64,000 bases of DNA from Fundidesulfovibrio terrae. Its GTDB lineage: Bacteria; Desulfobacterota; Desulfovibrionia; Desulfovibrionales; Desulfovibrionaceae. Below are positions 1,361 to 53,496 of the stretch, piece after piece. The first letter of the stretch is position 1; each line of letters begins with the position of its first letter. Location of the stretch: positions 1 through 64,000 of the forward strand of contig NZ_JAKZFS010000002.1 of assembly GCF_022808915.1 (NCBI RefSeq), written 5' to 3'. The notes under the pieces are model-generated. The model had not been told where the DNA came from, made no database searches, and was given only the letters and a program-made list of their open reading frames with translations. The translations under genes and the position numbers were made by a program.

Positions 1361-2332
1361 ATGGGACAGACAGCGGCGCGCCATGGGGCGGTGGGCGCGG
1401 CGGGGCTTGCGTGCGCGTTCGGGGGGGCCTCCCTCTGGGGGCTTTCGTTCGTGGTGCCCCTTTTCATGACCGGGATTTCGGCCTGGGACGTTTCCCTGGG
1501 ACGCTACCTCGTCTTCGGGACCATAGGCGCGGCGTTCATCCTGCGCGCAAGGGCGTCCGGCAGGGGCCTCACCGGCAGACAGTGGGCCAAGGCCTTCGTG
1601 TTTGCCGCCACAGGATATTACGGCTGCTACACGGCCATGGTGATGGCCATCGAGGCCGGCGGCGCGGCGTTGCCCACACTGGTCATGGGGCTCACCCCGG
1701 TGAGCGTGGCCGTGGCGAGCAACCTACGCACCCGCGAGACGTCTTTTTTAAGCCTGGCGGGGCCGCTGGCGTGCATTGGCGCCGGTCTGGTCCTGGTGAA
1801 CCTGGCGCGGCACTCGCAGGGGCTGGGCGGGGGCAACCTGGTCGTATGCATGGCCGCAAGCGTTGCGGCGTTGGCGATGCTGACCTACTATCTTGTGGCC
1901 AACATCGAATTCCTCATCCGCAACCCGGAATTGACGCCGCTCACCTGGGCCAATGCCACGGGGTGCGCGCTCCTGGTGTTCGCCCTGGCGGCCCTGGGTG
2001 CGCGCTTGGCCGTGGGCAACGGCTTCCCCTGGGAAGGCACGCCCACCGGCGCGGTGCAATACGGGCTATGCTGCCTGATTCTTGGGCTGGCCGTGTCCTG
2101 GCTGGGCGGGGTGCTGTGGAACAAGGCCAACGCGCTTCTGCCGCCAACCTTGGCCGGGCAGTGCATCGTGTTCTGGCCCTTGTCCGGGATCATCTACGCC
2201 TACGTGCTGCAGCGGGCGTTTCCGGGGGGCCGGGAAATCCTGGGGATGTCCCTGATCTTCGCCGGAGTGGTGTGGGGAATCCGGGCGGCGGGCAAAAGCT
2301 CCCGGCAGGGGCGTGCGGCCGAAAAGAAATAA
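1361..2332 (+). CDS. EamA/DMT-superfamily membrane transporter
   Basis: A 323-residue inner-membrane protein with about ten hydrophobic helices in two halves, the drug/metabolite transporter (EamA) arrangement. The first helix contains the typical LWGLSF segment and the C-terminal half repeats the pattern. The substrate cannot be inferred from sequence. The start is chosen for position and hydrophobic onset; the ribosome-binding site (AAGGGCAG) is weak and a little distant. It follows the SDR gene closely and ends at a strong hairpin facing the convergent gene. Confidence 0.85.
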   Translation: MGQTAARHGAVGAAGLACAFGGASLWGLSFVVPLFMTGISAWDVSLGRYLVFGTIGAAFILRARASGRGLTGRQWAKAFVFAATGYYGCYTAMVMAIEAGGAALPTLVMGLTPVSVAVASNLRTRETSFLSLAGPLACIGAGLVLVNLARHSQGLGGGNLVVCMAASVAALAMLTYYLVANIEFLIRNPELTPLTWANATGCALLVFALAALGARLAVGNGFPWEGTPTGAVQYGLCCLILGLAVSWLGGVLWNKANALLPPTLAGQCIVFWPLSGIIYAYVLQRAFPGGREILGMSLIFAGVVWGIRAAGKSSRQGRAAEKK

Positions 2333-2370
2333 CGCCCCGGCCCGCGGTTCCCGGGCCGGGGCGGCTTCAT
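2333..2370 (+). terminator. Terminator between convergent genes
   Basis: A 12-base perfect stem pairs CGCCCCGGCCCG (2333-2344) with CGGGCCGGGGCG (2352-2363). It starts at the EamA stop codon. The following T-tract is poor, so termination strength is uncertain; it could serve both convergent genes. Confidence 0.6.
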
Positions 2371-2395
2371 TCGCTGGGGCAGAAGGCCCGGGGCG

Positions 2396-3757
2396 TCACT
2401 GCAGACGCTTGCCGTTGACCGCGAGGCCCACGCCGTCCCAGACGGCGACCGAAGCCAGCCGGTCTCCGGAAGGCACGAGGATGCCTTGCAGAACCAACTG
2501 GTCGAGCTGGACGGCCATCTCCTGCCTGAGTGCCGGATCGGACGACGGGCGCTTGGTCTTGTTTTGGGCCAGCAGGCAGGCCAGCTCCAGCACTCCTTTT
2601 GCTGGGCCGTCGAGCTTGGCCGTGGCGCGCAGCATGGACGGGATCAGCGCGGCGTTGGCGGGCACCTGCTTCATATTCTCGGTGTTGACGGTGGCCTGAA
2701 GAGTGACCGGCCCCAGATCCCCTTCCAACGCCTTGAGGGAGAAGTCGAGCCGGGGCGACCGGGCCAGGAGGGAGTTGCCCACGCGCAGCAGGTCCTCCTG
2801 CGGCGAGCCCTGCGGGAGGGCTCCGGGTGTTGCTTGCTTCTGGAGGATGCTCTGGAGTTCATCCAGGGCGGGGACGTCCAGATTGGCGACGGCCAGGGAC
2901 ACCGTTGCCGGGATAACCGTCCCCGCCTGGTCGAGTCCGATCCCGCCGAATTCCGCTGCGTAGTCGAGTAGGCCGCCTCTGGGTTTGAGATCGAGGTTCG
3001 CATACAATTTGTCCAGGTGGACAGGGGTATCGGGTGCGGCGGGCTGGATATCGAAGGATTCGAGAGCGACGCGGTAGGAACCGCCCCAGATTTTTCCCGT
3101 GATTCTTCTGGCCTTGGAGGTGAAGGAGAATCCGGCGAAAGTCGCGGAGGCCTTGCCGTCGCCCAGCCGGATCAGGGGGCAGCGCCCCGTCATCTCGCTC
3201 TCGGAGACGTCGGCGTTGAAGGTGACGGAGGCTTCAAGGGGCTGCCACTCAACCTGCAGGGATGTCCCGTTGTCCAGCTGAACGGTCCGGCTCGCCGGGG
3301 GGACGGCTATGGAGGTGACGCCGCTTCCGTCGAAAGCGATGCGGGTGCGGAGTGTCGTCTGGGCCAGCTCGGGGAGCTTCGCCAGGAAGTCCCGGGGGAT
3401 TTGGGGTGTGTCCTGGTTTGCGGCGAAGGTGGTGTCGGTGATGGCCAAGCATGCCGCAGGTCCGCCGGCGAAGGCCACCGGGCCGTGGGACACGTCCAGA
3501 ATCGCGTCCAGGGTGATAGGCTTTCCGGAAGCGGTCCTGCCCGGTTCGCCCGGCACATCGAAGGCGACGGTGTAGGTGTATCTGCTGGTGAAGATTCCCT
3601 GCCGTTTATCTTTCAGCTTACAATTTACGCCAGGGGCGTCGGCTTTCATCTGTTCCAGGCGAGTGTTCAAGACCGCTTCGGCTTGGCGGCCGACGAAATA
3701 TGAGGCGGCGCAGTACGCGACAGCGAGAACGGCCAGAACCAGGGCGAGCTTTTTCAC
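2396..3757 (-). CDS. DUF945 (YdgA-like) family protein
   Basis: The protein of about 453 residues begins with a hydrophobic signal or anchor (VKKLALVLAVLAVAYCAASY) and continues as a long beta-rich periplasmic domain with the CKLKDKRQGIFTSRYTY-type opening and tail typical of the DUF945/YdgA family, whose function is poorly known. The frame is open further upstream, but the GTG at 3757 is preferred because GAGGAG lies just upstream and the signal sequence starts there. It follows ribD on the same strand with a gap of about 70 bases. Confidence 0.72.
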   Translation of the reverse strand: MKKLALVLAVLAVAYCAASYFVGRQAEAVLNTRLEQMKADAPGVNCKLKDKRQGIFTSRYTYTVAFDVPGEPGRTASGKPITLDAILDVSHGPVAFAGGPAACLAITDTTFAANQDTPQIPRDFLAKLPELAQTTLRTRIAFDGSGVTSIAVPPASRTVQLDNGTSLQVEWQPLEASVTFNADVSESEMTGRCPLIRLGDGKASATFAGFSFTSKARRITGKIWGGSYRVALESFDIQPAAPDTPVHLDKLYANLDLKPRGGLLDYAAEFGGIGLDQAGTVIPATVSLAVANLDVPALDELQSILQKQATPGALPQGSPQEDLLRVGNSLLARSPRLDFSLKALEGDLGPVTLQATVNTENMKQVPANAALIPSMLRATAKLDGPAKGVLELACLLAQNKTKRPSSDPALRQEMAVQLDQLVLQGILVPSGDRLASVAVWDGVGLAVNGKRLQ

Positions 3758-3830
3758 GAAAACTCCTCGGCGTAGATGTTGCGCGCAAATCAGGCCCGGC
3801 CGTCCGCGAGGCGCGGCCTCATGTCGGAAG

Positions 3831-4988
3831 TCACGCGGGTCCGTGAGGATCATCCTTGGGCATGTAGGTCAGCAGCAGGTCCTGCCCGCTGGGCCTGACT
3901 CCTGCCAGGCGCAGGCGGACGGCTTGCTCCATGGACTCCACGCAGTCGCCGGAAAAGACCGGCACGGCCATGGCGTCGCCGATGACTTTCGGGGCCAGGA
4001 AGTACAGAAACTCGTCCATGACGCCCTGTTTGACCAGGGAAAGGGCCAGCCTGCCGCCGCCCTCGCACAGGGTGGTGAAACATCCGGCCTCGCTACGCAG
4101 CTTGGCGAATCCGGCCGCAAGGTCCAGGCTTTCGCCGCTGGCGGGTAGCTCCCACACCCGCACGCCAAGATCCCGTAGCGCTTCGGCCCGTACCGACGCG
4201 GAGTTGAGGGCGTCGGTCCAGAAAATCGTCTGGTCGGGCCGACGGGCCAGAAGCGCCAGGGGGGCCGACGGTTCGGGCAGAAGCGATGTGACCACCACGG
4301 CCAGGGGCTGCTTGCCACCGTAACCGCCTTCGAGCCTGACTGTGAGCTGGGGGTTGTCCTGGCGCAGGGTGGCTCCGCCGACGATGACCGCGTCCACGCG
4401 GGCGCGCAGTTCGTGCACGGCGGCGCGAGACTCAGGGCCGCTCACCCATGCGGCGTGGCCTGTGCGCGAGGCGATGCGCCCGTCCAGAGTGGCCGCCATC
4501 TTGAGGATGTTGTAGGTGCGCGGCGTGAATTGCCAGACACGGAAATCGGCGATCATGTCCAGACATTCCCGCTCGAGCACGCCCACGGTCACGTCCACGC
4601 CCTTGGAGCGCAGGAACGTTGCGCCGCCGCCTTCAACGCGCGGGTTGGGGTCGGCGCAGCCCACCACGACCTTCTTGATGCCAGCCGCGAGAACCGCCAG
4701 GGTGCAGGGAGGGGTCTTGCCGTGGTGGTTGCAGGGCTCCAGGGTGACGTAAAGGGTGCAGGAGGATGTGTCCACGCTTTTGGACGCGGCGTCGGCCAGG
4801 CAGTTGACCTCGGCGTGGGCCTCGCCGCAGCGCTGGTGCCAGCCCTCGGCCACCACCTGTCCATCCCGCACCAGGACGGCCCCCACGCAGGGGTTGGGCG
4901 CGGTTGCTCCCTTGCCCCGGCGGGCAAGGTCCAGGGCGCGGGCCATGTGGGCTTCGTCAGGAGTTGTCGGGGCGTGACAGAGTATCAA
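3831..4988 (-). CDS. ribD: Bifunctional riboflavin biosynthesis deaminase/reductase
   Basis: RibD catalyses deamination of the pyrimidine riboflavin intermediate and then reduction of its ribosyl side chain. The N-terminal domain shows the zinc deaminase signature HAEVNCL and [11 protein letters not shown]; the C-terminal domain (about residue 150 on, from [14 protein letters not shown]) is the RibD_C reductase with the late [17 protein letters not shown] segment. At 385 residues the length is typical. The TTG start at 4988 has GCAGGAG correctly spaced and overlaps the end of the upstream dCMP deaminase gene by 32 bases; an in-frame ATG 13 codons later has no ribosome-binding site. Confidence 0.95.
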
Positions 4989-5418
4989 AGTTCACTCCTG
5001 CTTCGGTGAGCATGTCCCGGGAGAGGTCGTCCGGGTATCCTTCGGCGTAGTGGATATTCTTGATGCCGCAGTTGATGAGCATCTTCGTGCAGATGATGCA
5101 GGGCTGGGTGGTGCAGTAGAGGTCGGCTCCGGCGATGGAGACGCCGTGGGTGGCGGCCTGGATGATGACGTTCTGCTCGGCGTGGAGGCCCCGGCAGAGC
5201 TCGTGGCGCTGTCCGGAGGGGATGCCGAGCTTCTCGCGCAGGCAGCCGATGTCCAGGCAGTGCGCGGTACCCGCGGGGGCGCCATTGTAGCCGGTGGCCA
5301 GGATGCGCTTTTCCTTCACCGCGATGGCCCCGACCTTGCGGCGCAGGCAGGTGGAGCGCTCGGCCACCAGGAAGGCGATACGCATGAAGTATTCGGGCCA
5401 GGGGAGACGTTGGTCCAT
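4957..5418 (-). CDS. dCMP deaminase family protein (ComEB-like)
   Basis: A cytidine/deoxycytidylate deaminase-fold enzyme of about 153 residues. The zinc site is visible as HAEQNVIIQ and PCIICTKM, and [16 protein letters not shown] plus ATGYNGAP are characteristic of dCMP deaminases, which supply dUMP for dTMP synthesis. The frame opens earlier at a TTG (5475) and an ATG (5436), but the TTGACA at 5475-5470 looks like a -35 box, and the ATG at 5418 has GGAGAG upstream, so 5418 is preferred. It precedes and overlaps ribD. Confidence 0.88.
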
Positions 5419-5446
5419 GATCGGTATGCTCTCCATATTTTCACGG

Positions 5447-5475
5447 AAATTGCTGGGCGTAGCGCTCTTTGTCAA
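5447..5475 (-). promoter_or_regulatory. Candidate promoter of the dCMP deaminase-ribD pair
   Basis: A perfect TTGACA (-35) lies on the minus strand immediately after the glyA terminator. The -10 at 17 bases spacing is poor (CAATTT), so the assignment rests mainly on the -35 and position. Confidence 0.35.
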
Positions 5476-5478
5476 GAA

Positions 5479-5514
5479 ACAAGAAAGGCCGCCGGACTTT
5501 CGCCCGGCGGCCCT
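5479..5514 (-). terminator. Terminator of the fab-glyA operon
   Basis: On the minus strand a GGCCGCCGG/CCGGCGGCC stem with a GCGAAAGT-type loop is followed by CTTTCTTGTTTCTT. It lies just beyond the glyA stop codon and separates glyA from the dCMP deaminase gene. Confidence 0.88.
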
Positions 5515-5535
5515 AGAAACGTTTCTAGTGCGTTT

Positions 5536-6774
5536 CTACCAGGCGAACAGCGGGAACTGGCGGGCGAATTCCTTCACCTCGGCCTTGATGGCCGAAAGCG
5601 CGCTTTCGTTGTCCTTGGCGGTGATAGCGGCGTCGATCCAGGCCACCACCTTCTCCATCTCGGCCTCCTTCATGCCACGCGTGGTGAGCGCGGGCGTGCC
5701 CAGGCGGATGCCCGAGGTGACGAAGGGGGAGCGGGTCTCGAAGGGCACGGTGTTCTTGTTGGCGGTGATGCCGGCGGCGTCCAGGGCGATCTGGGCCTCC
5801 TTGCCGGTCACGTTCTTGTTGTTCAGGTCCACGAGCATCAGGTGGTTGTCCGTGCCGCCGGACACCAGGTCGTAGCCCAGGGAGGTGAGGCCCGAGGCCA
5901 TGACCTTGGCGTTCTTGACCACCTGGGCTTGGTAGAGGGCGAACTCGGGGCGCAGGGCCTCCAGGAAGGCCACGGCCTTGGCCGCGATGACGTGCATGAG
6001 CGGTCCGCCCTGGATGCCGGGGAAGATCTGGGAGTCGATTTTCTTGGCTTCTTCCTCGCCCGCTAGGATGAGCCCTCCGCGTGGTCCACGCAGGGTCTTG
6101 TGGGTGGTGGAGGTGGTGAAGTGGGCCTTGCCGATGGGCGAGGGGTGCTGGCCGGTGGCCACCAAGCCAGCGATGTGGGCCATGTCCACCATAAGCATGG
6201 CTCCGACCTCGTCGGCCACGGCCCGGAAGCGGTCGAAATCGATGATGCGCGGATAGGCGCTGGCCCCGGCCACGATCATCTTGGGCTTGTGCTCGCGGGC
6301 GAGCTTTTCCAGGGCGTCGTAGTCGATGGTGCCGGTCTCCTTCTTCACGCCGTAGAAGACGACGTTGAAGAAGCGGCCGGAGAAGTTCACGGGGCTGCCG
6401 TGGGTGAGATGGCCGCCGTGGGAGAGGTCCATTCCCAGGATGGTGTCGCCGGGCTTGAGCACGGAGAAGTACACGCCCATGTTGGCCTGCGAGCCGGAGT
6501 GGGGCTGCACGTTGGCGTAGTCGCACCCGAAGATTTTCTTCACGCGGTCGCGGGCGAGGTCTTCGGCCACGTCCACGAATTCGCAGCCGCCGTAGTAGCG
6601 CTTGTGGGGGTATCCCTCGGCGTACTTGTGGGTCATGACCGACCCCTGCGCCTGGCGCACGGCGGAGGACACGAAGTTCTCCGAGGCGATGAGTTCCAGG
6701 CCGCTCATCTGGCGGTCGATCTCGCTGGCAATGGCGGCGGCGATTTCCGGGTCGCGGATGAAGATTTCGTCCAT
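5536..6774 (-). CDS. glyA: Serine hydroxymethyltransferase
   Basis: A 412-residue PLP enzyme that interconverts serine and glycine while charging tetrahydrofolate with a one-carbon unit. Diagnostic segments are [13 protein letters not shown] near the N terminus, PHSGSQAN, and the PLP-lysine motif [15 protein letters not shown]. The frame is open upstream, but [10 protein letters not shown] with GAGGAAG as ribosome-binding site is the conventional start. It is the last gene of the lipid-synthesis operon, 22 bases after the glycosyltransferase gene. Confidence 0.97.
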
Positions 6775-6796
6775 GGCTTCCTCTATGCTTTGAGTA

Positions 6797-9067
6797 TTAT
6801 TCGACCGACAGCTCGGTGAAGGCTGCGCTGTACGGCGATGGGTCCGCAAGGACCGGCGTGCCCGGCGAGTTCCAGGTCCTGTAAATGAATTTGATGGTGT
6901 TCCTACCCGCCTTGGCCGTGAAAGGCAATTCGTCTGCGGCGTTCGGGGTGAGCCATTTCCCTGGGGCTATTGGACCGATGGTCTTGAGGGCCTGCCCGTT
7001 GACCTCGATGCGTACCTGCTGGCCGGGCATGATGTTCAGCAGGCCGAAGCGCAGGCGGGCTTCGCGCTCGGCAGGCGCGGAGAATGTGACGGAGGTTTCC
7101 GGTCCGGTGGCCCACCGCCAGCGCTTGGGGCCGTCGGATTCGAGATCCCTGAGCCCCGTCACGGAGAGTTCCCGGTCGAGGTTGTCCGGGGCGAAGAAAT
7201 CCAACCCCAGGCCAAGCGGCGTCACCGACAGCTGGAAGAAGGACATCAGGGAGAGGTTCCCCCCGGGATAGCCGGGGGTGGTGAGCGGCACATGGAACCT
7301 GAACCGCACGGTCAGTGTGGAAAACGGGGTGTAGCGCCTCAGGTACAATTTGGGTTCGAGCAGGACGAAATCCGCCTTTGGGGGCAGCTCCAAGCCCTTG
7401 TTGGCCAGGACGGGCACGGGTTGATCATCGTCGAACTGCGCCTCGATGGAGAATGTCCCGCCGCGCAGGCTGTTGCGGAACCGGGGGTGGATCTCGAGAG
7501 CGCAGGTGGCCGGGAGCGAATCATTTTTGAACACGAAGGAAAAAAAGCCGGTGTCGCCGTTGCGGGAAGGGTAGACGGAGTATCCCCGGTCGGAGAAGAC
7601 GGTGATGTCGCGCAACTCGTGGACGTTGGCGAAAAACGAGTCGGGCTGGTTGGTGACGGTCGCGGTCTCCCGCAGGCGTAACGTTTGCGGGGTGAGACGC
7701 GGGATGGTCTTCTGCACCAGCCGGAAGGGGGGCAGTTCCGCCACGACGGTACCATCCTCAATATCGGGACGGGAAGCTATCGTGGTGATGGTCGTGCCCG
7801 TCCTGTCGGGAGCGAGGGAATTGCTCGTGAAATTCTGGTAGGGACAGATCTGGTCGATATACCAGCTGGTAGAGTAGTATTCCGTGTCGAATTGGGATCG
7901 GACGAATGTTCCCGGTGTGAGGAATTTCGGAAAATATGACACCAGGCTCTTCATGTTCGAGTCGACTTTGCAGAAGTTGCCCTCGTAGATGTAGTCGTTA
8001 CTGAATATCTTTGAGGCAAGGGGCTGGGTCAGGGTGAACACGTTGGCCGAGCCAATCAGGAGGGCCACAAAGCAGGTAATCCACATCCTTACGTCGTTCA
8101 GCAGTGAGGACAGACAGAGTATGCAGAAGTATGGGATGAATATCAGATGCCAGGGATTGTAGTAGGACCCGTAGCGCAAGGCGATGATGACGGCCACGGG
8201 GAACAGCGAAGAGGAGGCGATGTAGTAGAAGAGTGGCCTGTTCGTCCGCAGAATCCTGAAAAGGCCGAGCAGGGCCAGGGCCGCGATTCCAAGGCGGATG
8301 AACGTGGAATCATGGAACGGAAAAAAGGCCCGGTTGAGGGCGGACCAGGTATTGGCGGCGACCTCCAGATAGGAGATCGATCCGGAAACCGGCTCGCGGC
8401 GCATCATTCCCAGCAGGAACGGGGTGACCGCCAGAAAGGGAAGCGTCACGGACAGGAGGAAGAACCAGGTCTTGCGTGAGCTGAGACGTTTGCCGTCGAG
8501 CAGGTAATAGGCCACCACCTGCGCCGGGAAAACGATGACGCTTATGAAGTGGGTAGAGTAGGCAAGAAAATTGACTGCGACCAGCTTGAGCCAGTCGTTT
8601 CGCGTGGACTCTCGCGCCAGCCGGCAGAACAACAGGCACGAGAGCGCGACAAGGCACAACCATATGGTGTATGGCCGCACCTGCCGGGAAAAGAGGATGA
8701 GGAAAGGGTCGGTGGCTACCAGGACCGAACCCACGATGGCCGCACGGGAAGAAAGGGTCTCCTTGAGCAGCTTAAAGCTGAGCCAGATGAGCAGCACTCC
8801 CGCGCCGAAGGCTGGAAGGCGCAGGATGAGATCCGAGTCGCCGCCCGCCATGAACGCCTTAACGAGCAGATGGAATCCTGGTGGGTGAACCTCGCAGCGC
8901 CTGCACCAGTCGAGAATGTATTCCACCGGATAGCGTGCCGTGAGGGGCACGACTAGTTCGTCCCAACGCAAAGGCGGGGCTTCGAGGTTCAAGAACCTCA
9001 AAACCCCGCCCATGAGCATGACAAAGATCAGGAAGCGGTTGGCTACCTTCTCGGCATCGTCAGTCAC
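6797..9067 (-). CDS. GT-C type membrane glycosyltransferase (ArnT/PMT-like)
   Basis: A protein of about 756 residues with roughly ten transmembrane helices in its first 390 residues, then a soluble, beta-rich C-terminal region of about 350 residues presumably outside the membrane. The first loop has an acidic [10 protein letters not shown] motif and the [12 protein letters not shown] segment, both typical of lipid-linked-sugar glycosyltransferases of the GT-C fold (GT39/ArnT). The acceptor is unknown. The GTG start at 9067 follows CAGGAA; the frame is open further upstream into fabF. It is inserted between fabF and glyA and appears less GC-rich than both. Confidence 0.75.
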
Positions 9068-9102
9068 GCATTCCTGCCGAGAATTGGTCAACACGAGCGC
9101 GC

Positions 9103-10350
9103 CTACTCGTATTTCTTGAAAATCAAGCACGCATTGGTGCCGCCGAACCCGAAGGAGTCGTTCAGGACCGTGCGCACGGTGCGCTTCTTGGGCGCATTGG
9201 GCGTGTAGTCCAGATCGCACAGGGGATCGGGGGTCTCGTAGTTGATGGTGGGGGGCACCACGTCCTCCATGATGGATTTCACGGAGAAGACGCTTTCAAT
9301 GGCTCCGGCCGCGCCGAGGCAGTGGCCGATCATGGACTTGTTGGACGTGACCGACAGCTTGTAGGCGTGGTCGCCGAACACGGTCTTGAGGGCCTGGGTC
9401 TCGCACTGGTCGTTCAGCTGCGTGGACGTGCCGTGCGCATTGACACAGTCGATGTCCTCGGGCTTCATGCCCGCCTCGCGCAGGGCGGCCGCCATGGCCA
9501 GGGCCGCGCCTTCGCCGGATTCCGGGGGGGCGGTCATGTGGTAGGCGTCGCCGGATGCGCCCATGCCCGCCACTTCGGCCAGTATCCTGGCTCCGCGGGC
9601 CTTGGCGAATTCGAGTTCCTCGAGCATGAGGATGCCCGCGCCCTCGCCCATGACGAAGCCGGTGCGGTCCTTTTCGAAGGGCCGCGAGGCCTTGGTGGGC
9701 TCGTCGTTGCGGGTGGAGAGGGCCTTGAGGGCGTTGAAACCGGAGAGGCCCAGGGCGGCGATGGTGGATTCCACGCCGCCGCAGATCATGGCCTTGGCCC
9801 GGCCGAGCATGATGTCGGTATAGGCGTAGCCCACCCCGTGCGCGCCCGAGGCGCAGGCCGTGGTGGTGCAGACGTTGGGCCCTTTCGCGCCGGTGAAGAT
9901 GGCGGACTGCCCCGCGGCCATGTTGGCGATGAGCACCGGGATGAAGAAGGGCGACACCCTGCCCGGTCCACCGGCCAGGAGCTTCTTGTGCTGCTCCTCG
10001 ATGGTGTGCAGGCCGCCCAGGCCGCAGCCGATGAGCGTGCCCACGAAGGGGGCCAGTTCGGGGGTGATTTCGAGCCCCGAGTCTTCCACGGCCATCATGG
10101 ACGCCACAACGGCGTACTGGGTGAACAGGTCCATGCGCCGGGCCTGTTTGACCGGAATGTACTTGGACGGATCGAACCCCTTGACCTCGCAAGCGAAGGT
10201 CGTATCGAACCCGGAGGCGTCGAAACGGGTGATGGGACCCGCGCCGGACACGCCGTCCAGGAGGTTCTGCCAGCTGGTGGCGAGATCGTTGCCGATAGGC
10301 GTGATCGCACCCATGCCGGTGACGACGACACGATTGAGCTTCATGGGCAT
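9103..10350 (-). CDS. fabF: Beta-ketoacyl-ACP synthase II
   Basis: FabF (415 residues) condenses malonyl-ACP with acyl-ACP in fatty-acid elongation. The catalytic Cys sits in TACASGAHG, and the two active-site His residues in NAHGTSTQLND and GHCLGAAGAIE. The N terminus RVVVTGMGAITPIG is canonical. Three start codons are possible in succession; the ATG at 10350 has AAGG at suitable spacing, though the ATG six bases later is equally conventional. It lies directly after acpP. Confidence 0.97.
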   Translation of the reverse strand: MPMKLNRVVVTGMGAITPIGNDLATSWQNLLDGVSGAGPITRFDASGFDTTFACEVKGFDPSKYIPVKQARRMDLFTQYAVVASMMAVEDSGLEITPELAPFVGTLIGCGLGGLHTIEEQHKKLLAGGPGRVSPFFIPVLIANMAAGQSAIFTGAKGPNVCTTTACASGAHGVGYAYTDIMLGRAKAMICGGVESTIAALGLSGFNALKALSTRNDEPTKASRPFEKDRTGFVMGEGAGILMLEELEFAKARGARILAEVAGMGASGDAYHMTAPPESGEGAALAMAAALREAGMKPEDIDCVNAHGTSTQLNDQCETQALKTVFGDHAYKLSVTSNKSMIGHCLGAAGAIESVFSVKSIMEDVVPPTINYETPDPLCDLDYTPNAPKKRTVRTVLNDSFGFGGTNACLIFKKYE

Positions 10351-50351: not shown

Positions 50352-50484
50352 GGCGTGATCCCCCTGGATGAGTGGTGGTTGCGGCCGCCGGTCGGCGGCG
50401 CGGGGGCAGGGATAGCCCGGCGCAGGGGGGATTTCTTGGACGAAATTGCGCAAAGGGTGGGCAAGGGAGGGCTGGCGACTTGCT

Positions 50485-52565
50485 CACTTTCATGCAAACT
50501 TAGTAAGTTAAATTCTAAAAAGAATCGTCTTATTAGAAGAGTATTTGTTAATCACATGTTCCGTCGCGAAAAAAAGGAATCCAAACTTTTCTCATATACG
50601 GTGTTCCGAATACATCGCTATGCTCAGACAAGCATTCAATTCTTTCGGACAAAAAGTGAAATTTTTTGTCGAATCCATCGAGTCCGGCAGAACCAATGAA
50701 AGGAAGAAAACGCGCTATTTTTAGAGGCCAATCTTCACCACAAATTATACTTAAAATACGGCCGCATCTAGATGAAACACGAGACCAGTCGAAGTCCCTG
50801 CGCATCGCAGCGCTCAGTAGCAAGATTCTGTCAAATTCTATTCCTGGAAATCTAGTCAATGCTTTTGATACAATATAGGTGCCGAAACTATGGGCCACAA
50901 CAGCAATTTGTGGTTTGACCGCAAATCTAGAAATAGTGTTGTTGTAAAACTGATGAAATTGCCCGACCCACTTCCTTCTAGAAAAAGGGTCTATTATGCC
51001 GAGCCTCGCGTCGCCATAATCCCACGGCATATACAAAAACCTATGCCCGTCTGTGGCGAACGTTAACTCGAAGCCCAGATCGTTTTTCCATGTGCCGCGA
51101 GTGTTGATCCCGTGTACTGCGAAAACGAGGATGTCTGGCCGTTCAGATGCATATTTAGATGTGAAGCTGTCAACCGCTTTGGCTGCTAGAGCAATATTTT
51201 TTGTTTCTTGGTTTCCGATAACTAAATCTGTAGGCATGCGGTCCAAGAGTACGTCGCCGCATATCTCCATAATTGTATCGGAAAGTTTCGAGCCAAGAAT
51301 GTCAAAAAACATCGATAGTTCAGTTGTTGAAAGTAATGCGGTGAGAATTCGCACAACCTCTCGGAAGACAGGTTTCTTGAGAATTGTTGAAAAAAGAGGT
51401 TTCGCATCAATTTCGGTGTTAACGCCAGGATTATGTATTTGTTCTTTTAAGTATAAGGCGGCATGTGTTTCATGGGCCGTTAAGTGGAAGAACCTGAGGC
51501 GGTCATGCTCCTGTATAAGCATGCCGGAGTCGAGAAGAATATTGATAAGTAGCTCAACGTCACTTTTATTTGCTACAAATTCCTGGCATATTTTTGTTGC
51601 TTCTTCATGAGGGATAAGGCGATCTCCGTTCATTAACATTTTGTATGCAAGTGCACTGAGGGCGCTTTCGACTGTTTTTGGATCAATTCTCGCCGGGATG
51701 AGTGATTTTGTGTGGTCACGCCAAGTGGAGTATCTTAGCATCTCAGAAAACAAGTATTGCCTCGTGCCAACTCCATATTTGTGAGCGTTCCTGATTGTTA
51801 TTAAGAACAAAGGGTGCCTTGCTAAGTTCATGAGTTTTTTGTCCGATTCAATAGATGCAAGCAGCCGTTCATGGTCGGGTACTTCTTGTAAGAAACGAAC
51901 AATCTGTTCGTTTGTTAGGAGTGGGATTTCTGCTGATTGCCATCCACGAGTAGTGAGCAAGTGGGTATTGTACCCGTGACGAGAGGTGATAATAATTATG
52001 CTGTCAGTGTATTTTGAGTCGATACCAAGTATTTCGCGCATTGCTTTGTCAGAGAAGAGTGGTGTCAACTCGTCAAAGCCGTCAAATAAAAACAGCAAGG
52101 AATTTGGAGCTGTTTTTGTTGATAGGATGTCGAAATTCAAGTTTGATTCAAAGCGCGCAATAGATGCATCCAGCAGGTCAGACAGTGAGCTGCTATAATT
52201 TCTTAGTGAAACAAATATCGGGATGATTCCGTGCTTTTTGACTGCTTCATAAGCAAGCATGTCTAAACTTGTCGTCTTCCCCGTGCCGGGGCCACCAAGC
52301 AAAACAAGGCGTGTGCATGGTTGAAATATTTGATCCTGCGATAATCCAATTAAATTCTCGAAGGTTGGGTAGCCAGGTAGGTTTTGATAGGGGCGCGTAC
52401 CGGAGGAATAGTATTTGCCAACGGCCACAACATATTTATGCAAGTCAGGTGTTTCATCCATCAAGCAGGCCCCTATAAAAGACATTGAACGTCGAAATTA
52501 ATACAAAAGTTGTTGGTTGTGGCTTGGTCTTGCGTGTGAAATTAACTTTACTTTTTACACCCCGA
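50485..52565. mobile_element. AT-rich island carrying the NACHT-hydrolase gene
   Basis: Base composition changes abruptly at about 50485 and 52565. Rows at 51241 and 51781, counted by hand, are 45 and 38 percent GC, while flanking genes are far higher. Near the ends AGTAAGTTAAATTC (50502-50515) faces AGTAAAGTTAATTTC on the opposite strand (52552-52538), a possible imperfect inverted repeat. No transposase, integrase or tRNA is present, so the mechanism of arrival is not visible. Confidence 0.5.
50548..52457 (-). CDS. NACHT NTPase fused to an alpha/beta hydrolase
   Basis: Counted from the open-frame Met at 52485 the protein has 645 residues. The NACHT core shows P-loop GGPGTGKTT (64-72), Walker B LFLFDGFDEL (131-140), sensor TSR (167-169) and a winged-helix end FHLTAHETHAALYLKE (333-348). 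After a short helical region, residues about 450-640 form an alpha/beta hydrolase: oxyanion loop VHGINTRGTW (457-466), nucleophile elbow AHSFG (Ser533) and SEHSDVF (His622). This start (Met10) is preferred because AGGGG precedes it. Base composition is far more AT-rich than the neighbours. It is probably a single-gene defence NTPase, with the hydrolase as effector. Confidence 0.85.
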
Positions 52566-52572
52566 ATTCCCC

Positions 52573-53496
52573 TCACCTCCTCGACCCCAACATATACTGC
52601 CTGGGCGTGGCCCCGGTGTAGCGCCGGAACACCCGGTTCAGGTGGCTCTGGTCCGCGAACCCGGCCTCGGCCGACACCTGGGCAATGGGCGTTCCCCCCG
52701 CCAGCATCCGCTTGGCCAGCTCCACGCGCAGCTGGTTCTGGTAGGCGTGGGGCGTCACGGCGTATGCCTCGCGGAACACGCGCGGCAGATGGCAGGCCGA
52801 GACCCCGCAGGCCGCCGCCATCTCGCTCAGGCTGATCCTGTCCGTTGCCCTGGCCGCGATCATGCGCGCGGCAAGCGTCGCCGCGCGGCGTTCGGCCCTG
52901 GGCGGTCCGCCCGAAAGCCTGACCGTCTCCCGGCAGGTGAAGAGCTTCTCTAAGGCGTCTTCCAGCAGGGCCAGCTTCTCAGCCCCCGAAGCGCCCTGGT
53001 CCTGGGCGCGGCCGAAACGCAGGAAGGCCTGGGCCGCGTCTCCGTCGTCCAGCACGGCCGGGACCGCCGGGTCGAACGCCAGCGCCTCCCCGCAGCCGGG
53101 GAGTCCGGCATGGTCCCGGGCGTCGGGTCGGGCCGGGCCGCCGGGCGGATCGTCCGGCCCTGCCGGAGCCGTCAAGCGGCTTCGGGCGCGGGCCAATTGG
53201 CCCTCGAACCAGCCCCGCTCCAGGTAGAACTTGCGGTACTTGAGCGTCTGGCCGGGCTGCGGATTGCAGGCGTGGGGCTCGCCCGGCGGAAAAAAGACCG
53301 CCGCGCCCGGGCCCATGAGCCACTGCCCACCACGGCAGCCGAGCAGCGTGGCCCCTTCCTGCACCACGGACACGGAGTAGGTCTCGTGGGTGTGGGTGCC
53401 GAAGGGGCTTCCGGCGATGCGCGTATCGCGCGACTCCACGAACGGCAGGTCCGGGTCGCGCAGGAATGCGGTGTGGCTTCTGGGGGCGGCGTCCAT
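52573..53496 (-). CDS. AraC-family transcriptional regulator
   Basis: A 307-residue regulator: N-terminal cupin-like sensor domain (THTHETYSVSVVQEG ... GEPHACNP) and C-terminal AraC double helix-turn-helix (SLSEMAAACGVSACHLPRVFREAYAVTPHAYQNQLRVELAKRML and QVSAEAGFADQSHLNRVFRRYTGATPRQY, residues about 220-303). A Pro/Gly-rich linker of about 35 residues divides them. Such proteins often control a neighbouring transporter; here an EamA permease lies beyond the inserted island. Confidence 0.92.
   Translation of the reverse strand: MDAAPRSHTAFLRDPDLPFVESRDTRIAGSPFGTHTHETYSVSVVQEGATLLGCRGGQWLMGPGAAVFFPPGEPHACNPQPGQTLKYRKFYLERGWFEGQLARARSRLTAPAGPDDPPGGPARPDARDHAGLPGCGEALAFDPAVPAVLDDGDAAQAFLRFGRAQDQGASGAEKLALLEDALEKLFTCRETVRLSGGPPRAERRAATLAARMIAARATDRISLSEMAAACGVSACHLPRVFREAYAVTPHAYQNQLRVELAKRMLAGGTPIAQVSAEAGFADQSHLNRVFRRYTGATPRQYMLGSRR

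What the first reader, a model, noticed from the sequence alone, without database searches (positions are those of the whole stretch)
50485..52565. NACHT NTPase fused to an alpha/beta hydrolase in an AT-rich island: candidate single-gene antiphage system
Seen: one gene with NACHT motifs (GGPGTGKTT, DGFDEL, TSR, FHLTAHETHAALYL) and a C-terminal hydrolase with AHSFG nucleophile elbow and SEHSDVF histidine. Its composition is far more AT-rich than the flanks and it sits between an EamA permease and an AraC regulator. Known: bacterial NACHT proteins are STAND NTPases with antiphage activity, often with an effector at one end. Inference: the hydrolase is the effector, released or activated when NACHT senses phage. 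The NACHT-then-hydrolase order, with almost no separate sensor region, is unusual.
Basis: partly seen in the sequence, partly recalled or inferred. Interest (0 to 1): 0.9.

Follow-up and report, generated by a model that had tools for sequence, protein, structure and literature searches.

The report
NACHT switch fused to lipase-like enzyme
A bacterium has picked up a single foreign gene that joins an immune-receptor-type molecular switch to a lipase-like enzyme, probably a one-gene defence against viruses, with the enzyme at the opposite end from where such receptors usually carry it.

Summary
One intact minus-strand ORF (50548-52485, 645 codons) joins an NLR-type NACHT module, through about 90 residues, to a C-terminal alpha/beta hydrolase with Ser533-Asp585-His622. 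It is 43% GC between flanks of 66% and 72%. In 4 of 6 sister genomes the AraC and EamA neighbours are adjacent without it: a one-gene insertion.

The hydrolase belongs to a sparse family; the triad is intact in 23 of 23 aligned rows. Other members are fused to receiver domains in Detocs-like three-gene loci (one on a viral contig), to DUF6932, to zinc-ribbon-like regions near PD-Lambda-4 or Bil genes, or to membrane or TPR tails; none of those found carries a NACHT. An interchangeable effector is the best reading. A lipid substrate is inferred from the fold alone.

Published bNACHT proteins are described as effector-NACHT-sensor, and fungal lipase-NACHT receptors carry the lipase first; here the enzyme comes last. 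There is no phage assay, no neighbouring defence gene, and no second example of the fusion. The receiver-hydrolase effector may already be a listed Detocs variant (recalled, unverified). Verdict: new variant of a known kind, probably antiphage.

The parts
50452..52571 (.). single-gene low-GC insertion between AraC and EamA (approximate ends)
   Evidence: BLAST against four sister genomes that have AraC and EamA adjacent; flanks align up to 50451 and again from 52570-52600, by genome
50548..52485 (-). NACHT-alpha/beta hydrolase gene, 645 codons
   Evidence: open frame and translation
52470..52474 (-). AGGGG ribosome-binding-site-like motif 8 bases before ATG at 52461 (Met9), the likelier start
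   Evidence: sequence; inference
51883..52308 (-). NACHT NTPase core, residues 60-201
   Evidence: Pfam PF05729 above its cutoff
52270..52296 (-). P-loop GGPGTGKTT, residues 64-72 (Lys70 at 52276-52278)
   Evidence: sequence; G67, G69, K70 nearly invariant in A6
52066..52083 (-). Walker B DGFDEL, residues 135-140
   Evidence: sequence; D135-E139 nearly invariant in A6
51436..51678 (-). NACHT-associated winged-helix region, about residues 270-350, with FFHLTAHETHAALYL at 51448-51492
   Evidence: PADLOC Avs2 model matches 270-328, E 1.4e-5; aligned with bNACHT-like relatives; the profile reaches this region in NLRC4
51175..51435 (-). linker, residues 351-437; the only non-catalytic region after the NACHT module
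   Evidence: position between the domains; no Pfam, PADLOC or NCBIfam match there (PHROGs not searched)
50551..51174 (-). C-terminal alpha/beta hydrolase domain, residues 438-645
   Evidence: family alignment A2, structure model pTM 0.71, Foldseek
50887..50889 (-). Ser533, predicted nucleophile in AHSFG elbow
   Evidence: 23 of 23 conserved; between strand 89-95 and helix 97-108 of the domain model
50731..50733 (-). Asp585, predicted triad acid
   Evidence: 23 of 23 conserved
50620..50622 (-). His622, predicted triad base
   Evidence: 23 of 23 conserved

Best explanation
The gene is a horizontally acquired single-gene defence protein. At rest the NACHT module holds the protein as an inactive, probably ADP-bound monomer. 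An infection cue, by direct binding or through a host factor, triggers nucleotide exchange and oligomerisation, which brings the C-terminal hydrolases together and switches them on. The enzyme then cuts an ester or lipid substrate, most likely membrane lipid, and stops growth or kills the cell before phage matures. Shown here: domains, intact motifs, foreign insertion, and family ties of the hydrolase to defence-type modules. Inferred: phage sensing, oligomerisation, the substrate, and the outcome.
For: NACHT of NLR type. Hydrolase triad intact in 23 of 23 family rows, at 20-29% identity to the window domain for the 13 others in A2. Model with alpha/beta-hydrolase order; best solved matches are cutinases, then PlaB phospholipase, a DDHD domain and a monoglyceride lipase. 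One-gene insertion, absent from the same site in four sister genomes and from the 98 other relatives searched. The same hydrolase is the C-terminal part of receiver proteins in three loci whose neighbours match PADLOC candidates PDC-M60A and B, one on a viral contig. Members lie next to a PD-Lambda-4_A gene (E 1.3e-288), next to Olokun OloA/OloB, and near BilC/BilD. Published parallel: the PNP effector is shared by CBASS, Detocs, pAgo, DRT8 and NLR-like systems (PMC10952713, passages).
Against: I know of no phage test of any member. The window gene is not beside another defence gene. No second NACHT-hydrolase fusion was found, so conservation of the architecture cannot be shown. Published bNACHT proteins are described with an N-terminal effector and C-terminal sensor (PMC12169576, passages), the reverse of this order. 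Pfam found no kinase domain in the long Detocs-like genes, so their identity as Detocs is not proven. Several hydrolase relatives are in no evident defence context (tandem hydrolases, TPR or propeller tails). No random-locus control for neighbourhood was run, and plasmids are rich in defence genes anyway. Foldseek TM-scores are 0.33-0.45, below the 0.5 usually asked for one fold (recalled), and the stretch holding Asp585 and His622 (domain residues 145-189) has pLDDT under 50.
Confidence: 0.65

Rival explanations
1. The C-terminal hydrolase domain is the sensor, placed where bNACHT proteins carry theirs: it binds a phage or host ligand, perhaps without needing catalysis, and the NACHT oligomer acts through a partner or through the N-terminal 57 or so residues.
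For: Published order is effector-NACHT-sensor, and clade-14 bNACHT proteins lack a discernible effector domain yet defend (PMC12169576, passages).
Against: All three triad residues are kept in 23 of 23 rows; in other members the domain follows a receiver domain, an effector position.
Confidence: 0.12
2. Defence aimed at plasmids or other mobile DNA, or an addiction-like function, using the same switch and enzyme.
For: 16 of 27 plasmid records with the hydrolase are typed conjugative; single-gene insertion.
Against: A Detocs-like locus with this hydrolase lies on a viral contig among phage-type genes (gene names by eye); no antitoxin-like partner gene in the insert.
Confidence: 0.1
3. An ordinary regulated esterase or lipid enzyme working with the AraC and EamA genes, not immunity.
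For: Co-oriented with AraC and EamA; relatives with TPR or propeller tails are not obviously defensive.
Against: AraC and EamA are adjacent without it in four sister genomes; low GC and sporadic presence; bacterial NACHT modules are chiefly known from conflict systems (general knowledge).
Confidence: 0.1
4. A decayed or inactive arrival.
For: Only one genome has it; no relatives close enough for a selection test.
Against: Open frame, P-loop, Walker B and full triad all intact.
Confidence: 0.03

Closest known systems
Bacterial NACHT (bNACHT / NLR-related) antiphage proteins
   Same: NACHT module with P-loop, DGFDE and winged helix; relatives of the NACHT half in several phyla and on three viral contigs
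   Different: Described as N-terminal effector, C-terminal sensor (SNaCT or NCH1; PMC12169576, passages). Here no recognised N-terminal effector, and an enzyme occupies the C terminus
Detocs defensive two-component systems, receiver-effector component (DtcC)
   Same: Same hydrolase family is fused to a receiver domain in Detocs-like three-gene loci; modular effector logic
   Different: The window gene has a NACHT switch in place of phosphorelay and no partner genes. The best-described Detocs uses a PNP effector (PMC11249213, passages). From memory only, a 'Detocs hydrolase' variant may be listed in DefenseFinder
Fungal NLRs with SesB-like lipase domains
   Same: Alpha/beta-hydrolase of lipase type joined to NACHT (PMC4986451, passages)
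   Different: SesB is N-terminal and the C terminus often carries ankyrin, WD40 or TPR repeats; here the enzyme is C-terminal and no repeats were found
DS-8 antiphage protein
   Same: Enzyme plus NACHT in one protein, both needed for defence (PMC13092281, passages); best NCBIfam hit of P0001, in the NACHT
   Different: Enzyme is a metallophosphatase, not a serine hydrolase; score 28.9 against a cutoff of 790
Alpha/beta-hydrolases of predicted bacterial conflict systems (Kaur et al. 2020, 2021)
   Same: Alpha/beta-hydrolase predicted as an effector coupled to NTP-dependent switches or Death-like domains, the latter predicted to hydrolyse membrane lipids (PMC7159879 and PMC8195603, passages)
   Different: Paired with caspases or adaptor domains in multi-gene systems; I did not test whether it is the same hydrolase family

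Membership tests
bNACHT / STAND NTPase | NACHT domain above the curated cutoff | tested here: met
   PF05729 30.0 bits vs 26.7
bNACHT / STAND NTPase | P-loop, DGFDE Walker B, SR motif, winged-helix region | tested here: met
   nearly invariant columns G67 G69 K70, F132-E139, S168 R169; profile match to NLRC4 spans positions 85-402; motif labels recalled
bNACHT / STAND NTPase | N-terminal effector and C-terminal sensor | tested here: not met
   about 57 residues before the NACHT core with no match in Pfam, PADLOC or NCBIfam; hydrolase at the C terminus
bNACHT / STAND NTPase | antiphage activity | not testable with these tools
   needs phage assay
Avs2, DS-8 or EruA equivalog | full-length model above its cutoff | tested here: not met
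   17.4/1000, 28.9/790 and 15.2/1000 bits
alpha/beta hydrolase superfamily | Ser-Asp-His triad with nucleophile elbow | tested here: met
   23 of 23 rows; elbow AHSFG has Ala, not Gly, two before Ser
alpha/beta hydrolase superfamily | curated Pfam hydrolase cutoff | tested here: not met
   P0001 Hydrolase_4 15.5 vs 27 bits; family member L034 passes it, 29.9 bits
alpha/beta hydrolase superfamily | alpha/beta-hydrolase fold | tested here: met
   domain model pTM 0.71, mean pLDDT 66.4; top solved matches cutinases and lipases, but TM only 0.33-0.45; moderate confidence
alpha/beta hydrolase superfamily | hydrolase activity and substrate | not testable with these tools
   needs enzyme assay
Detocs | three genes: histidine-kinase sensor, receiver, receiver-effector | tested here: not met
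   the insert holds one gene without receiver or kinase
Fungal-type SesB NLR | N-terminal SesB lipase, central NOD, C-terminal repeats | tested here: not met
   order reversed, no repeats matched (definition)

The most novel reading that the evidence does not exclude
A reverse-polarity bacterial NLR: the NACHT switch drives a C-terminal lipase-type effector with almost no separate sensor, and this one hydrolase is a plug-in effector reused across NACHT, phosphorelay (Detocs-like), DUF6932, PD-Lambda-4-linked and Bil-linked defence modules, a prokaryotic counterpart of fungal lipase NLRs.
Probability: 0.35. Interest if true: 0.8.

Novelty: new variant of a known kind. Interest (0 to 1): 0.62.

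Why it matters
If true, it shows that the effector of an NLR-type immune protein can sit at the sensor end, and it names a lipase-like effector family shared by several bacterial defence architectures, echoing the lipase-NACHT receptors of fungi. Being one gene with a two-residue test (Lys70 and Ser533), it is directly testable.

Tried and rejected
Full-length AlphaFold of P0001 from one sequence was useless (pLDDT 34). A6, meant as a deep alignment for the whole protein, misaligned the two hydrolase rows, so only the hydrolase domain was folded, from three sequences. Most weak A2 hits are other hydrolases or unclear: in the sample centred on Pseudomonas, 57 of 398 genomes pass E 1e-3 but only 4 pass 1e-30; in the window's phylum 10 of 395 pass, of which only the window's own is strong. 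These searches scored at most 8 or 11 candidates per genome, so counts are lower bounds. The hydrolases in the genomes of NACHT loci L012 and L017 are separate genes of a different kind. The hydrolase in sister genome G004 (L112) matches DUF726 above its cutoff and was dropped as a family member. NACHT-profile hits on hydrolase ORFs of L113, L115, L109 and L074 came from the two hydrolase rows in A6; a NACHT-only profile (19 rows, columns to residue 350) matched the window gene alone among the hydrolase ORFs, its three other hits being separate ORFs. The protein had no match in phage records at 1e-3, nor the domain at 0.1. NCBIfam gave no Detocs model among its matches to the Detocs-like genes. 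Seven viral-contig scans were aimed at the hydrolase: two contigs were found, L113 (again in 108) and L115; searches found none. The promoter and terminator scan was near chance (3 vs 3.7 and 4 vs 2.6 expected). Literature: 'nacht' + 'beta hydrolase' + 'antiphage' and 'detocs' + 'hydrolase' + 'effector' gave 0 papers each; other listings were scanned by title and start of abstract only, and passages were read in eight papers. The library lacks most subscription papers, so absence from print is not shown.

Full report
The gene. The ORF at 50548-52485, minus strand, encodes 645 residues. An ATG eight codons in, at 52461, has AGGGG eight bases upstream and is the likelier start (inference). It is found once in its own genome. 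In a sample from genus to order, 3 of 99 genomes had a match: its own and two others, G003 and G036, that match in the NACHT only.

Foreign insertion. GC is 43.2% against 66.5% and 72.1% in the flanks, and no other ORF of 100 aa or more in the window is below 56% GC except one antisense to it. Close relatives of EamA and AraC lie next to each other in 4 of 6 sister genomes, G001-G004; in G005 and G006 no such pair was found, and G006 is only 66% complete. Between the aligned flanks lie 19 bp in G004, 82 in G003, 184 in G001 and 612 in G002, against about 2.1 kb in the window. The order on the minus strand is AraC, NACHT-hydrolase, EamA, all co-oriented. I saw no clear repeats at the ends, by eye.

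NACHT half. Pfam NACHT passes its cutoff. A pattern-based scan of 84,980 species genomes gave 16 loci with relatives and a scan of viral contigs gave three; all matches end by residue 356. In these 19 loci the ORFs picked have 489-668 aa in 15, 916-1140 aa in three and 292 aa in one. None of the 21 loci L002-L022 held the hydrolase at E up to 1. Profile A6, from P0001, 18 of these 19 relatives (L008 left out) and two hydrolase rows, hits NLRC4 at 1.1e-15 and NLRP3 at 1.7e-12.

Hydrolase half. tblastn against 72,556 plasmids found 27 records with the domain; of 29 records matching the whole protein, none covered 80% of it at one place. Fourteen diverse rows gave alignment A2 with 11 invariant columns, including Ser, Asp and His. 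The window domain and 22 of 28 other family domains or ORFs found were aligned: the HG motif, Trp466, Ser533, Gly535, Asp585, Gly598, Gly601, Gly604 and His622 are conserved in 23 of 23. Of the six left out, five show the triad residues in their profile alignments; in L115 the alignment stops before the His. L034 passes the Pfam Hydrolase_4 cutoff through this domain; L036 passes Pfam cutoffs only through its other hydrolase domain. The A2 profile's 41 hits in solved structures are weak (best E 0.0046) and mainly alpha/beta hydrolases, but four are Pumilio-type proteins. AlphaFold on the domain with three sequences gave pTM 0.71 and mean pLDDT 66.4, with strands and helices in alpha/beta-hydrolase order and Ser533 at the strand-helix turn; residues 145-189, which hold Asp585 and His622, are under pLDDT 50. 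Foldseek gave 21 matches at E 0.001 or better, mostly cutinases, with PlaB phospholipase at rank 8 and a DDHD domain and a monoglyceride lipase at ranks 45 and 47; TM 0.33-0.45.

What the hydrolase keeps company with. (a) Receiver domain: Enterobacter L024 and Klebsiella variicola L030 plasmids and viral contig L113, each the third gene after a 1110-1191 aa protein and a 146-157 aa protein. The long genes match PADLOC PDC-M60A in 3 of 3 loci, the middle gene matches PDC-M60B in the two scanned, and the hydrolase gene matches PDC-M60C through its receiver part only in 3 of 3. This is the layout published for Detocs (DtcA kinase, DtcB buffer, DtcC regulator; PMC11728103, passages). Against it, Pfam found no kinase domain in the long genes; one has a weak RsbW match at its C-terminal end (E 0.007). 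In L113 the locus lies between phage replication-type and lysis/terminase-type genes (names by eye). (b) DUF6932: Klebsiella L023 next to OloA/OloB, Pantoea L026, Aliarcobacter L032, and L116 from the Bacillus-centred sample, judged by eye. (c) Zinc-ribbon-like start (by eye): Rhizobium L027 next to PD-Lambda-4_A (1.3e-288) and Aminobacter L035, one gene away from BilD and BilC. (d) Membrane segments (by eye), TPR or propeller tails: L028, L029, L033, L034 (SAVED gene nearby), L073, L107. (e) Tandem hydrolases: L028, L036, L074-L076, L102-L104 and viral contig L115. (f) Stand-alone with another tail: L025 and its like. Fifteen plasmid stretches were viewed, two without annotation; I saw no defence genes named in L028, L029, L032, L033 and L036. 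PADLOC was run on 20 chosen proteins from nine of the loci, not on every neighbour, and there was no random control.

How rare. Strong matches (E below 1e-30): 4 of 398 genomes in the phylum sample centred on Pseudomonas, 4 of 296 centred on Kordia, 2 of 297 in the window's order including itself, 1 of 395 in its phylum, itself, 1 of 299 centred on Bacillus, 0 of 15 genomes of NACHT loci. At most 8 or 11 candidates per genome were scored in the larger searches, so these are lower bounds. A NACHT-only profile matched no hydrolase-family ORF except the window's. A tree puts the window domain beside a Sinorhizobium protein with modest support (88/84), both on long branches.

Interpretation. One effector family under several different switches is the pattern seen with the PNP effector (PMC10952713, passages). 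That supports 'hydrolase = effector' for the window protein. The novelty is order: bNACHT proteins are described with N-terminal effector and C-terminal sensor (PMC12169576, passages), and fungal SesB lipases are N-terminal (PMC4986451, passages). Here the enzyme is last and only about 90 residues are left for sensing. Sensing may therefore lie in the NACHT, the linker or the hydrolase itself, or work through a host factor, as DnaJ does for bNACHT25 (PMC12169576, passages). Antiphage activity and substrate remain untested. On checking, confidence in the best explanation was set at 0.65 rather than 0.66 because the missing kinase match and the low TM-scores are now counted in full.

Noticed in passing
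L112 (G004:C5:120000-135000), 1890-9233: In a sister genome, a block of genes at 37-40% GC holds two dynamin-family genes (weak LeoA matches), a DUF726 hydrolase with a zinc-ribbon-like start (by eye) and an unknown gene; it looks like another mobile, membrane-directed defence candidate.
   Followed up: partly
L113, 1744-6726: Viral contig in IMG/VR carries a Detocs-like locus whose third gene is receiver + this hydrolase + a C-terminal hydrophobic segment.
   Followed up: partly
L107 (G1396:C35:20000-38000), 7822-9501: A genome of the same family as the window carries a hydrolase-TPR member of the family at 40% GC in a 62% GC stretch, so also foreign-looking.
   Followed up: partly
L023, 2922-11404: Klebsiella plasmid stretch with UvrD-helicase and ATP-binding genes (Gabija-like by annotation, not tested), DUF6932-hydrolase and Olokun OloA/OloB matches side by side.
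   Followed up: partly
L115, 4990-6987: A tandem hydrolase gene of the same family sits on the strand opposite to phage-type genes (by eye) on a viral contig.
   Followed up: no
L028, 1-6816: Rhizobium ruizarguesonis plasmid locus with a hydrolase protein of 1207 aa that has a propeller-like end, next to a tandem hydrolase gene and what looks by eye like a patatin-type gene.
   Followed up: no
window 50430-50451: The motif GATTTCTTGGACGAAATTGCGC between EamA and AraC is kept, with small differences, in all four sister genomes compared and marks the left edge of the insertion.
   Followed up: no
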